64,000 nt of DNA from Gambelia wislizenii (taxonomy: Eukaryota > Chordata > Lepidosauria > Squamata > Crotaphytidae), in the NCBI GenBank assembly GCA_030847615.1, contig JAUMIR010000001.1, forward strand, positions 257,179,187 through 257,243,186. The letters are read 5' to 3'. Below, piece by piece: positions 5,233 to 48,095 of this stretch (positions within the stretch are counted from its first letter, which is position 1; each line of letters begins with the position of its first letter). The position numbers and the translations under genes are program-made. The notes beneath the pieces are model-generated. The model saw only the letters and a list, made by a program, of their open reading frames with translations. It ran no database searches and was not told the DNA's origin.

Positions 5233-5458
5233 CAGTTGTCCCTCCATATCCATGGATTTCATATCCACAGATTTAAGTATTCATGGCTTGAAAATATTCT
5301 TTAAAAAATAATAAAAAAGCAAACCTTGATTTTGCCATCTTATATAAGGGACACCATTTTGCTATGCCATTGCATATAATGGGACTTGAGTAGTCACAGA
5401 TTTTGGTATCCACCGGGGTTCCTGGAACCAAACCCCAGAGAATATGAAGGGACAACTG
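5233..5458. mobile_element. Tigger-like MITE
   Basis: 226 bp with exact TA flanks. Termini are CAGTTGTCCCTCCATATCC and the near-perfect inverse ending gaagggacaactg. The interior (ttgccatcttatataaggga, ggttcctggaacc) resembles the MER2/Tigger class known from mammals. Confidence 0.9.
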
Positions 5459-37410: not shown

Positions 37411-38375
37411 CAAGGACAAGGTTCGGTCCTGGGCCCAGTGCTATTCAACATCTTTATCAATGATTTGGATGAGGGAATTAGGGGCATACTTATCAAATTT
37501 GCAGATGACACCAAATTAGGAGGAGTAGCCAATACCCTAGAGGACAGGATCAAAATTCAAAATGACCTGGAGAGCTGGGCCAAAGCTAACAAAATGAAAT
37601 TCAATACAGAGAAGTGTAAGGTACTGCACTTAGGGCGAAAAAATGGAATGCATCGATACAGGGGGAGACCTGGCTGAATGAGACTACAGTACATGCGAAA
37701 GAGATCTAGGAGTCCTAGTAGACCACAAGTTGAACATGAGTCAATAGTGTGATGTGGCAGCTAAAAAGGCCAATGCGATTTTGGGCTGCATCAATAGGAG
37801 TATAGTGTCTAGATCAAGGGAAGTAATAGTGCCGCTCTATTCTGCCTTGGTCAGACCTCACCTAGAATACTGTGTCCAGTTCTGGGCACCACAATTCAAA
37901 AAGGATATGGACAAATTGGAGCGTGTGCAAAGAAGAGCGACTAAAATGGTGAAAGTTCTGGAAACGATGCCTTATGAGGAGAGACTTAGGGAGCTGGGTA
38001 TGTTTAACCTGGAAAAAAGACGGTTAAGAGGCGATATGATAGCCCTGTTTAAGTATTTGAAGGGGTGTCACATTGAGGATGGAGCAGGCTTGTTTTCTGC
38101 TGCTCCAGAGACTGGAACACGGAACAATGGATGCAAGCTCCAGGAACAGAGATTCCACCTCAACATTAGGAGGAACTTTTTGACAGTAAGAGCTGTTCGG
38201 CAGTGGAACACACTCCATCAGAGCGTGGTGGGGTCTCCTTCCTTGGAGGTCTTTAAACAGAGGCTGGATGGCCATCTGTCGGGGATGCTTTGATCGTGAT
38301 TTCCTGTGTGGCAGGGGGTTGGGCTGGATGGCCCTCGTGGTCTCTTCCAACTCTGCAATTCTATGATTCTATGAT
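37411..38375 (+). pseudogene. CR1 LINE: best preserved copy, RT to C-terminus
   Basis: Frame 37,354-37,677 enters CR1 at [20 protein letters not shown] and includes [18 protein letters not shown], the reverse-transcriptase catalytic region (Asp pair in FADD). It then reads KANKMKFNTEKCKVLHLGRK. A frameshift near 37,670 leads to a second frame. After a TAG at 37,746, an intact 179-residue stretch (37,754-38,293) covers [20 protein letters not shown] through GDMIALFKYLKGCHIEDGAG to the natural stop. The 3' UTR ends in tctatgattctatgattt. CR1 protein retrotranscribes its own RNA at the target. The upstream endonuclease and N-terminal reverse transcriptase are missing, so it is dead on arrival but comparatively young. 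Confidence 0.95.
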
Positions 38376-45052: not shown

Positions 45053-45327
45053 CAGCAAGGTCCTCGGGTCGTAGGTTTGATGAGAGTTTCCTTCTCTTAG
45101 ATGGTTGACCTTACTGGGTTGGATGAGCACCATCTGCCCGGGTTTGGGATTAGAGTTTTCCTTCTCCTAGGATGGTTGCCATAAGGCTAGAAAGCCCATC
45201 CTGCCCTTTGACACTCTTTGTCAGGCCCTTCGGTGTTGACCTGTCTGGCATGCATAGCTCCAAACATCATTAGGGTACGCAAGCCTCTCTCCCACGACAA
45301 GGGGGTGTCAATGGAGAGGTGTTATAG
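45053..45327. repeat. Unclassified LINE-like segment with internal direct repeat
   Basis: gatgagagtttccttctctt at 45,078 and gattagagttttccttctcc at 45,148 form a direct repeat, each followed by gatggttg. I suspect the 5' part of a LINE but cannot confirm it. Confidence 0.35.
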
Positions 45328-45329
45328 TA

Positions 45330-48073
45330 CAGTCGTCCCTTCACATTCGCGGGGGTTCCGTTCCGCGGACCCCCGCGAATGTGAAAAAACTGCGAATAAC
45401 GACACCCCTCCCTCCCCAGGCCTTCGCGGGGCCTTCCTAGGCCCCGCGAAGATCTCCCCGGCCCTCCCTCCCTCCCTCCCCAAGCCTTCGCGGGGCCTTC
45501 CTAGGCCCCGCGGAGGCCTCCCCGGCCCTCCCTCCCTCCCTCCCTCCCCAGGCCTTTGCGGGGCCTTGCTAGGCCCCGCGGAGGTCTCCCCGGCCCTCCC
45601 TCCCGCCCTCCCCAGGCCTTCCTGGGGCCTCCGGAGCGTCTCCGGAGGCCCCAGGATCGCCTCCCCAGCCCTCCCCACCCCGTCCCCAGGCCTTTCTGGG
45701 GCCTCCGGATATGCTCCGGAGGCCCCAGGATCGCCTCCCCAGCCCTCCCCAGGCCTTCCTGGGGCCTCCGGAGCGTCTCCGGAGGCCCCAGGATCGCCTC
45801 CCCGGCCCTCCCCACCGCGTCCCCAGGCCTTCCTGGGGCCTCCGGAGCGTCTCCGGAGGCCCCAGGATCGCCTCCCCAGCCCTCCCCACCCCGTCCCCAG
45901 GCCTTTCTGGGGCCTCCGGAGATGCTCCGGAGGCCCCAGGATCGCCTCCCCAGGCCTTCCTGGGGCCTCCGGAGCGTCTCCGGAGGCCCCAGGATCGCCT
46001 CCCCAGCCCTCCCCACCGCGTCCCCAGGCCTTCCTGGGGCCTCCGGAGCGTCTCCGGAGGCCCCAGGATCGCCTCCCCAGCCCTCCCCACCCCGTCCCCA
46101 GGCCTTTCTGGGGCCTACGGAGATGCTCCGGAGGCCCCAGGATCGCCTCCCCAGGCCTTCCTGGGGCCTCCGGAGCGTCTCCGGAGGCCCCAGGATCGCC
46201 TCCCCAGCCCTCCCCACCCCGTCCCCAGGCCTTTCTGGGGCCTCCGGAGATGCTCCGGAGGCCCCAGGATCGCCTCCCCAGCCCTCCCCAGGCCTTCCTG
46301 GGGCCTCCGGAGCGTCTCCGGAGGCCCCAGGATCGCCTCCCCAGCCCTCCCCACCCCGTCCCCAGGCCTTTCTGGGGCCTCCGGAGATGCTCCGGAGGCC
46401 CCAGGATCGCCTCCCCAGCCCTCCCCACCCCGTCCCCAGGCCTTTCTGGGGCTTCCGGAGATGCTCCGGAGGCCCCAGGATCGCCTCCCCAGCCCTCCCC
46501 ACCGCGTCCCCAGGCCTTCCTGGGGCCTCCGGAGCATCTCCGGAGGCCCCAGGATCGCCTCCCCAGCCCTCCCCACCCCGTCCCCAGGCCTTCCTGGGGC
46601 CTCCGGAGCGTCTCCGGAGGCCCCAGGATCGCCTCCCCAGCCCTCCCCACCCCGTCCCCAGGCCTTTCTGGGGCCTCCGGAGATGCTCCGGAGGCCCCAG
46701 GATCGCCTCCCCAGCCCTCCCCACCCCGTCCCCAGGCCTTCCTGGGGCCTCCGGAGCGTCTCCGGAGGCCCCAGGATCGCCTCCCCAGCCCTCCCCACCG
46801 CGTCCCCAGGCCTTCCTGGGGCCTCCGGAGCATCTCCGGAGGCCCCAGGATCGCCTCCCCAGCCCTCCCCACCGCGTCCCCAGGCCTTTCTGGGGCCTCC
46901 GGAGATGCTCCGGAGGCCCCAGGATCGCCTCCCCAGCCCTCCCCACCCCGTCCCCAGGCCTTCCTGGGGCCTCCGGAGCGTCTCCGGAGGCCCCGGGATC
47001 GCCTCCCCAGCCCTCCCCACCCCGTCCCCAGGCCTTTCTGGGGCCTCCGGAGATGCTCCGGAGGCCCCAGGATCGCCTCCCCAGCCCTCCCCACCCTGTC
47101 CCCAGGCCTTCCTGGGGCCTCCGGAGCGTCTCCGGAGGCCCCAGGATCGCCTCCCCAGCCCTCCCCACCGCATCCCCAGGCTTTCCTGGGGCCTCCGGAG
47201 CATCTCCGGAGGCCCCAGGATCGCCTCCCCAGCCCTCCCCACCCCGTCCCCAGGCCTTCCTGGGGCCTCCGGAGCGTCTCCGGAGGCCCCAGGATCGCCT
47301 CCCCAGCCCTCCCCACCCCGTCCCCAGGATCGCCTCCCCAGCCCTCCCCACCCCGTCCCCAGGCCTTTCTGGGGCCTCCGGAGATGCTCCGGAGGCCCCA
47401 GGATCGCCTCCCCAGCCCTCCCCACCCCGTCCCCAGGCCTTCCTGGGGCCTCCGGAGCGTCTCCGGAGGCCCCAGGATCGCCTCCCCAGCCCTCCCCACC
47501 GCGTCCCCAGGCCTTCCTGGGGCCTCCAGAGCATCTCCGGAGGCCCCAGGATCGCCTCCCCAGCCCTCCCCACCCCGTCCCCAGGCCTTCCTGGGGCCTC
47601 CGGAGCGTCTCCGGAGGCCCCAGGATCGCCTCCCCAGCCCTCCCCACCGCGTCCCCAGGCCTTCCTGGGGCCTCCGGAGATGCTCCGGAGGCCCCAGGAT
47701 CGCCTCCCCAGCCCTCCCCAGCCCATCCCCAGGCCTTTCTGGGGCCTCCGGAGATGCTCCGGAGGCCCCAGGATCGCCTCCCCAGCCCTCCCCACCCCGT
47801 CCCCAGGCCTTCCTGGGGCCTCCGGAGCGTCTCCGGAGGCCCCAGGATCGCCTCCCCAGCCCTCCCCACCCCTCCCCAGGCCTTCATGGGGCCTCCGGAG
47901 CGCCTCTGGGGGCCCCGTGGACGCCTCCCTGGGCATCCCCGCTCCCTCTATGTCTTTCACGGGGCCTCTGGAGGCCCCGTGTCGCGGTTTTGGGGGGGCC
48001 CGGGGGGGCCCTCCCAAAACCGCGAATAAACGAAACCGCGAATGTCAAGTTCGCGAATGTGGAGGGACAACTG
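45330..48073. mobile_element. Giant Tigger-like MITE carrying a tandem array
   Basis: 2,744 bp with exact TA flanks (45,328-45,329 and 48,074-48,075). Left end CAGTCGTCCCTTCACATTCG; the right end is the inverse of CAGTTGTCCCTCCACATTCG. Subterminal hairpins are present at both ends (gcgggggttccg...cggacccccgc on the left, cgcggttttggg...cccaaaaccgcg on the right). The termini match the small Tigger-like MITE at 5233. More than 90 percent of the element is the tandem array described next. No transposase reading frame. Confidence 0.9.
45412..47890. repeat. 74-bp GC-rich minisatellite of hairpin/G4 units
   Basis: About 31 canonical units of 74 bp, or shorter by one spacer block, preceded by three variant units (45,412-45,600) and followed by degenerate ones to about 47,985. 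Each unit has a perfect hairpin, for example 46,592-46,628 with 17-bp arms (TCCTGGGGCCTCCGGAG) and a 3-base loop. Each also has a C-rich spacer whose complement GGGGTGGGGAGGGCTGGGG (46,561-46,579) fits the four-run G-quadruplex pattern. Seventy-four is not a multiple of three, and no stop occurs in any frame of either strand. Reading frames of 590-953 residues on both strands are therefore artefacts. Confidence 0.97.
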
Positions 48074-48095
48074 TATTAAAAATGTAACAAACAAT

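What the first reader, a model, noticed from the sequence alone, without database searches (positions are those of the whole stretch)
45330..48073. Tigger-like transposon bloated by a hairpin-plus-G-quadruplex tandem array
Between exact TA-flanked Tigger-like ends lies an array of about 34 GC-rich units of 74 bp. Each unit has a perfect hairpin (15-17-bp arms, 3-base loop). Each also has a C-rich spacer whose complement, GGGGTGGGGAGGGCTGGGG, fits a G-quadruplex with loops of 1, 1 and 2. Alternating two strong secondary structures at fixed spacing over 2.5 kb inside a mobile element is unusual. The array could affect replication, chromatin or element mobility.
Basis: partly seen in the sequence, partly recalled or inferred. 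Interest (0 to 1): 0.9.

Follow-up and report, generated by a model that had tools for sequence, protein, structure and literature searches.

The report
Jumping gene carrying reshuffled hairpin arrays
A family of jumping genes in this 2.5-billion-base genome carries, between nearly identical ends, a stack of DNA hairpins whose length differed in all 32 complete copies measured, likely because DNA copying switches strands at the hairpins and duplicates blocks of them, which would make the family a natural record of how repeats grow.

Summary
Window 45330-48073 is a TA-flanked, non-coding Tigger-like element whose left end occurs exactly 2,096 times in the host genome. The 32 copies with both ends in hand have 32 different lengths, 475-5,956 bp. 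Inside lie related hairpin-plus-C-rich units: A (64 bp), B (63 bp), C (74 bp); the window copy is A+C. Among 20 A+C copies unit order is hardly shared (2 of 190 pairs at p<=0.01, 1.9 expected) though ends differ by only 0.9-1.7%. Exact blocks up to 955 bp are duplicated inside copies; between copies the longest is 274 bp. The hairpins show two published footprints of template switching: inverted loops (4,194 of 14,299 C units; 71 A units against 9,128) and stems changed on both arms (B to C, 17 of 17 Watson-Crick pairs; 4 of 1,000,000 random trials). Best reading: a non-autonomous element likely moved by a Tigger transposase, its hairpin minisatellite likely remodelled by template switching and block duplication. 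New variant of a known kind; G-quadruplex roles untested.

The parts
45328..45329 (.). TA target-site duplication, left copy
   Evidence: sequence
45330..45351 (+). left terminal inverted repeat, 22 bp, 2 mismatches to the right one
45340..45385 (+). left-end hairpin with a 17-bp stem
45406..45613 (+). type-A units (64 bp, hairpin plus CCCT-rich spacer), about three
   Evidence: Tandem Repeats Finder rows; unit parse
45614..47877 (+). type-C array: 32 units (27 near-full of 74 bp, five shortened), each a hairpin with 3-base loop plus C-rich spacer (G-rich on the minus strand)
47878..47951 (+). diverged last unit with a hairpin of its own, shared by the other A+C copies printed
47958..47981 (+). 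right-side hairpin CACGGGGCC...GGCCCCGTG
47983..48024 (+). right-side hairpin CGCGGTTTTGGG...CCCAAAACCGCG
48052..48073 (+). right terminal inverted repeat, 22 bp
48074..48075 (.). TA target-site duplication, right copy
   Evidence: sequence

Best explanation
Window 45330-48073 is one copy of a TA-flanked, non-coding Tigger-like transposon family with 2,096 exact left ends in this genome; it is likely moved in trans by a Tigger transposase, and its interior, a minisatellite of hairpin units, is likely remodelled in each copy by template switching at the hairpins and by duplication and deletion of multi-unit blocks. Shown: the ends, the related unit kinds, a different length in each of 32 copies, the near-absence of shared unit order between copies, exact block duplications inside copies, inverted loops, and the paired change of both stem arms between unit kinds B and C. 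Inferred: that a polymerase meeting the hairpin switches to the other arm or the sister strand and back, which inverts the loop and copies one arm onto the other; that the same stalled or broken forks, or unequal exchange, add and remove blocks of units; and that this happens mostly after insertion. The ends, not the array, are likely what the transposase needs, since copies with only a few hairpin units (475 and 477 bp) and with about 75 carry the same ends.
For: Family and ends: 2,096 exact left ends, 0 in the reversed control; 32 complete copies, 32 lengths. Tigger link: two loci with broken frames matching PF03184 and PF03221 share the right end at about 84% over 52-56 bp. No shared order: 2 of 190 pairs at p<=0.01; the same test finds 17 of 17 simulated pairs without block events but 3 of 17 at 20 events per lineage. 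Block duplication: exact self blocks up to 955 bp against at most 274 bp between copies; mean self block 302 bp against 188 with unit order shuffled. Loop inversion: 4,194 of 14,299 C units, only 211 with other loops than the two reverse-complement classes; 71 A units at about 40 places, 31 of them single, and 23 within 6.8 kb at C22:344504361-344511153. Same two-sided haplotype with both orientations within L012 and within L017. Stem: B to C perfect over 17 pairs, 4 of 1,000,000 trials. Template switching as a cause of arm homogenisation and spacer inversion: passages of PMC8604942 and PMC8794818.
Against: Within unit kinds stem changes are mostly one-sided: C 277 one-sided, 3 two-sided (1.7 expected); A 105 and 2 (3.1 expected). 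So arm copying is rare at present or acted only in the past. A control for A loops without T gives 274 hits of which only 71 are the inverted words; other words (CCGG 60 and CGCA 12 of the first 100 listed) are as common. Units are about as different within as between copies (4.8 and 4.3%), so arrays did not each grow from one unit. 15 of 190 pairs reach p<=0.05 (9.5 expected) and mean z is 0.31, a hint of some shared order. That hairpins cause the block changes is not shown. No transposase copy with a matching left end was found.
Confidence: 0.55

Rival explanations
1. The arrays are ordinary minisatellites that turn over by unequal crossing-over and slippage; the hairpins and the inverted loops are side effects of palindromic sequence and do not drive the expansion.
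For: Multi-unit block duplications are what unequal exchange gives; one-sided stem changes dominate within unit kinds.
Against: Does not by itself explain why every unit kind is a hairpin and why B and C differ by mutually complementary changes; but these could be older than the present expansion.
Confidence: 0.27
2. Arrays are exchanged between copies (ectopic gene conversion) or rebuilt during transposition by gap repair from another copy, so each new insertion starts with a new mixture from a shared pool of units.
For: Unit variants form one pool: divergence within copies about equals that between copies, with no shared order.
Against: Exact duplicated blocks up to 955 bp inside L012, whose own ends carry at least two changes from the other A+C copies, suggest change after insertion; the 23 inverted-loop A units at one C22 place suggest local growth.
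Confidence: 0.12
3. The units are kept because they help mobility, for instance as extra transposase-binding sites, as proposed for Galileo.
For: Units A and B share TTCGCGGGG with the left-end hairpin (41 and 22 of 500 shuffles score as high); the idea is in print for Galileo (passage in PMC4079207).
Against: The shared word is only weakly unusual; unit C lacks it (483 of 500 shuffles score as high) yet is abundant; copies with only a few hairpin units exist.
Confidence: 0.06

Closest known systems
Non-autonomous DNA transposons with internal tandem repeats: Xstir repeats on a Xenopus MITE (seen only as table row and citation in PMC6947457); BrickBuilt minisatellite MITE of Porphyromonas gingivalis (PMC4596501, abstract and outline); DINE-TR1 helitron (named in a passage of PMC6947457)
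   Same: Short conserved ends enclosing a head-to-tail array; spread over many places.
   Different: Here three related unit kinds, each a strong hairpin; at least 2,096 left ends; arrays from a few to about 75 units without shared order; inverted loops. I did not see whether those elements have such features.
Tetris and Galileo, foldback-like elements with repeats in their terminal repeats (PMC4079207, passages)
   Same: Variable number of internal tandem repeats in a DNA transposon; no transposase gene in the copy.
   Different: There the repeats (about 220 bp in Tetris) lie inside long inverted repeats on both sides; here the array is single, in one orientation, between 22-bp inverted repeats.
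SVA retrotransposons with a GC-rich VNTR (listing and abstract starts only; VNTR details recalled)
   Same: Mobile element carrying a GC-rich array of variable number.
   Different: SVA is a retrotransposon; this is a TA-flanked cut-and-paste type element.
Template switching between inverted-repeat arms (PMC8604942 and PMC8794818, passages)
   Same: Arm homogenisation and inversion of short loops between arms longer than 9 bp.
   Different: Reported there case by case (ten spacer inversions in yeast genes; 69 loop clusters in RNA genes); here many thousands of near-identical hairpins in one genome.

Membership tests
Tigger/pogo group of the Tc1/mariner superfamily | TA target-site duplication | tested here: met
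   TA before the left end in all 20 elements printed and in the 10; TA after the right end in all 20 and 9 of 10 (L044 reads TG).
Tigger/pogo group of the Tc1/mariner superfamily | short terminal inverted repeats beginning CAG | tested here: met
   22-bp inverted repeats CAGTYGTCCCTYCACATTCGCG; that Tigger ends begin CAG is recalled.
Tigger/pogo group of the Tc1/mariner superfamily | related element with DDE_1 and Tc5-type DNA-binding domain carries the same ends | tested here: inconclusive
   Right end shared at about 84% by L035 and L036, whose broken frames match PF03184 and PF03221; no matching left end found there.
Tigger/pogo group of the Tc1/mariner superfamily | own transposase gene | tested here: not met
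   Open frames across the element read only the array on both strands; it is non-autonomous.
MITE | non-coding, inverted ends, high copy number | tested here: met
MITE | short length (recalled: mostly under about 600 bp) | tested here: not met
   2 of 32 copies are under 600 bp; the rest 846-5,956 bp.
Minisatellite / VNTR | GC-rich tandem units of 10-100 bp, number differing between copies | tested here: met
   units of 63-74 bp, about 0.70-0.77 GC, numbers differ between insertions
Minisatellite / VNTR | number differing between individuals at one locus | not testable with these tools
   one haploid assembly only
Foldback element | long inverted repeats built of tandem repeats on both sides | tested here: not met
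   inverted repeats are 22 bp; array in one orientation
Template-switch hairpin (mutational footprint) | loop inversion between intact arms | tested here: met
   control shows other loop words as well
Template-switch hairpin (mutational footprint) | several stem changes made complementary together | tested here: inconclusive
   B to C fits; no excess of two-sided changes within C or A units; in the 68-unit B set 26 two-sided against 10.7 expected, but 24 of them at one pair, probably the separate right-end unit kind.

The most novel reading that the evidence does not exclude
Hairpin formation itself is the engine: a transposon family has spread thousands of near-identical palindromes through a large genome, where each stalled fork flips loops, rewrites stems and duplicates blocks, so that the genome holds a replicated, readable record of fold-back replication events in its germline, with one copy already grown to at least 6.8 kb of tagged, inverted-loop units.
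Probability: 0.32. Interest if true: 0.82.

Novelty: new variant of a known kind. Interest (0 to 1): 0.62.

Why it matters
Whether palindromes form hairpins in a normal germline, and whether that drives repeat expansion, is hard to observe. Here about 14,300 near-identical hairpins of one kind and 9,200 of another sit at dispersed, marked places in one genome. Loop orientation is a ready tag for single events, and constant ends with unique flanks make each array addressable. Rates of loop inversion, arm copying and block duplication could be read from long reads of a few individuals. It would also show a DNA transposon that seeds a hypervariable minisatellite at about two thousand places.

Tried and rejected
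Single bloated element or assembly artefact: rejected, since arrays recur in the fetched copies, without N. Arrays independent of the ends: looked for in three clusters lacking an exact left end; ends were found. Protein-coding array: rejected (long frames on both strands; a 74-bp period is not a multiple of 3). A before/after pair in a segmental duplication: flanks of neighbouring copies were compared (20 pieces; one was 16 bases long by my mistake, two lay on the element side, leaving 17 flanks); none looked like a duplicate of one insertion, though L056 and L070 share a 302-bp flanking repeat and L063 and L069 a weaker one. CpG decay as a methylation signal: the spacer excess comes mainly from one column, so not used. 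Each array grown from a single unit: rejected by equal diversity within and between copies. Unit derived from the left-end hairpin: only weak support. Host: a recalled squamate SINE motif was not found in the window (up to 3 mismatches) or exactly in the 50 loci then held; contig sizes (502, 449, 380, 338, 270, 163 Mb and some of 21-31 Mb) only suggest a reptile with macro- and microchromosomes, an inference. Rfam and tRNA scans of the window found nothing. Literature: the listings showed me no report of this family; subscription papers and repeat libraries lie outside these searches.

Rows left out: L023 (left end, no right end within the 7 kb held) and L050 (right end only) are not among the 32 lengths. 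Lengths include the right-hand TA (2 bases). L001-L008 are short fetches of the window copy and of copies refetched as L009-L015. The 20 copies are 20 of the 39 other best matches to the window's own left end listed (40 of 1,580 first-look candidates were scored there) and so lean to the A+C kind; only the 10 follow listing order, and they need an exact 33-bp left end. Order tests use near-full C units from 20 copies (548 units). One search failed at its last step and was rerun. One search cut L041 short (77 bp) and L044 one base short; corrected. Places were grouped and counted by eye.

Full report
What was reported. The finding describes a TA-flanked Tigger-like element at 45330-48073 filled by about 34 hairpin-plus-G-quadruplex units of 74 bp. 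The sequence agrees: TA on both sides, 22-bp inverted ends with 2 mismatches, about three 64-bp units (type A), then 32 units of the 74-bp kind (type C; 27 near-full, five shortened), a diverged last unit, and a right end with further hairpins. One C unit folds at -26.4 kcal/mol as DNA (z -6.6); the left end and the last 136 bases fold strongly too (z -7.3 and -8.9). The G-quadruplex motif occurs 31 times on the minus strand, against 17.9 +/- 3.1 in shuffles.

It is a family. The genome holding the window has 2.47 Gb in 68 contigs. A 33-bp pattern, TA plus the first 31 bp of the left end, occurs exactly 1,033 + 1,063 times, the reversed control 0 times. I fetched 20 copies from the best-match list and 10 in listing order; 19 of 20 and 10 of 10 have both ends. 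With the window and two of the three copies fetched by their arrays there are 32 complete elements with 32 different lengths, 475 to 5,956 bp including one TA; the longest has about 75 C units. GC is 0.70-0.77 in 29 of the 30 elements; the value printed for L041 belongs to a mis-cut piece. The 10 copies in listing order average 1,439 bp, so 2,096 copies would be about 3 Mb.

Two sub-families. Of the 10 copies in listing order, 8 have type-A units followed by the 63-bp type B (in some only one to three B units), and 2 are A+C like the window. The sub-families differ at bases just inside the left end. The unit kinds are related: B against C scores 54.5 where 200 shuffles reach at most 19; A against B 50.5 and 20.5; A against C 26.5 with a shuffle maximum of 28, so that pair alone is weak. 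C units with exact 3' arms number 14,299 genome-wide, which at 23.8 per copy in the 20 A+C copies in hand suggests about 600 A+C copies, an estimate from a biased sample.

Arrays belong to the ends. The listings show 14 separate C-unit clusters in the first 43 Mb of contig C1. 11 lie beside an exact left end with matching orientation. The other three were fetched: two have both ends, one has the right end within the piece fetched.

Mobiliser. At two places a right-end match of about 84% lies 1.3-1.4 kb downstream of a DDE_1 match. These loci (L035, L036) carry broken frames with PF03184 and PF03221, and their last 52-56 bp align at about 84%. No matching left end was found on them. The window element has no transposase frame. 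Movement in trans by a Tigger transposase is likely but inferred.

Arrays are scrambled between copies. 548 near-full C units from 20 copies were put in one 74-bp frame. Units differ by 4.8% within and 4.3% between copies in a sample of pairs; over all pairs a label permutation finds a small excess of similarity within copies (14 of 1,000 permutations as low). So the variant pool is largely shared. A tolerant, ungapped test for shared unit order finds 2 of 190 pairs at p<=0.01 (1.9 expected), 15 at p<=0.05 (9.5 expected) and a mean z of 0.31. The same test finds 17 of 17 simulated pairs from one array without block events, 13 with 2 events per lineage, 10 with 5, 4 with 10, 3 with 20 and 1 with 40. 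By exact matches, between-copy blocks are no longer than after shuffling unit order (mean 170 and 178 bp). The ends of 23 A+C copies differ by 0.9% (left 78 bp, partly selected for identity) and 1.7% (right 150 bp, not selected). Unit order was thus largely lost while the ends hardly changed, or was never shared.

Blocks are duplicated inside copies. The longest exact block found twice in one copy is 955 bp in L012, 811 in L024 and 701 in L027; the median over 20 copies is 225.5 bp, against a median of 158 and a maximum of 274 bp between copies (323 bp between copies when only near-full units are strung together). With unit order shuffled the mean self block falls from 302 to 188 bp. In the tolerant test 4 of 20 copies (L012, L024, L027, L013) have a self block that at most 2 of 100 shuffles reach.

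Loops are inverted. In C units between exact arms the loop is CGT, CAT, TGT or TAT in 9,894, ACG or ATG in 4,194 and anything else in 211 of 14,299. CGT to ACG by substitution needs three changes; one inversion suffices. Many of the 4,194 may descend from few events, because ATG is linked to a neighbouring base (83 of 119 ATG units carry T at column 7). In 567 parsed units 16 of 52 haplotypes seen more than once occur with both orientations, including cases with markers on both sides of the loop inside one copy (L012, L017); short conversion tracts could also give this. In the different palindrome of A units 9,128 have TCCT or TGCT and 71 their reverse complements, at about 40 places on seven contigs, 31 of them single units. 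TGCT to AGCA needs only two changes, TCCT to AGGA four. One place, C22:344504361-344511153, has 23 of the 71, and a series of four spacings (64, 372, 188, 128) recurs 3.5 kb further on (64, 369, 188, 128), as block duplication of tagged units would give. A control for A loops without T returns 274 hits: 203 are other words, in the first 100 listed chiefly CCGG (60; its own reverse complement) and CGCA (12). The two inverted words, 2 of 81 possible, make up 26%, so they are enriched but not alone.

Stems are rewritten together. The B and C stems differ at 2 positions of the 5' arm and 4 of the 3' arm; C is perfect over 17 pairs where B has two wobble pairs, and 4 of 1,000,000 random placements of as many changes give a perfect stem. 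The right-end hairpins use yet other pairs at the same positions, some of them wobble. Against this, within C units 277 stem changes are one-sided and 3 two-sided (1.7 expected), within A units 105 and 2 (3.1 expected). Arm copying is therefore rare now, or the contrast reflects past selection for hairpins.

Mechanism. Template switching between inverted-repeat arms is published as a cause of both arm homogenisation and spacer inversion, the latter seen only at arms longer than 9 bp (PMC8604942, passages), and of stem repair and loop inversion in RNA hairpins, where loop inversion was rare (PMC8794818, passages). Arms of 10-20 bp with 3-4-base loops, many to a locus, fit. I take fold-back or sister-strand template switching as the source of loop and stem changes, and fork stalling, breakage or unequal exchange as the source of block gains and losses. 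That hairpins cause the block changes is inferred; there the main rival, ordinary unequal exchange, differs.

What is known. Internal tandem repeats in DNA transposons are known, as are VNTR-bearing retrotransposons (listing). I saw no report of this family in nine listings. It is a new variant of a known kind.

Noticed in passing
G000 C22:344504361-344511153 (outside the window): 23 type-A units with inverted loop within 6.8 kb, spacing series repeated 3.5 kb apart: an unusually long, tagged array.
   Followed up: partly
G000 C1:1854667-1858520 (outside the window): 34 type-A units over 3.9 kb without an exact left end in the listing.
   Followed up: no
window 37754-38293: 179-aa open frame that looks like the end of a CR1/LINE-type reverse transcriptase (resemblance recalled).
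   Followed up: no
window 45218-48079: Open frames of up to 953 aa run through the array on both strands because stops are rare in it; not read as a gene.
   Followed up: yes
window 5415-5458: 79.5% match to the element's left end on the minus strand, perhaps an older relative.
   Followed up: no
L042, right end: The right end of this copy carries an extra 17-base direct repeat in the alignment.
   Followed up: no
genome, listing: Many DDE_1 matches lie in open frames of 456 aa without stops, a possible younger Tigger-type family; L037 did not carry the ends described here.
   Followed up: partly
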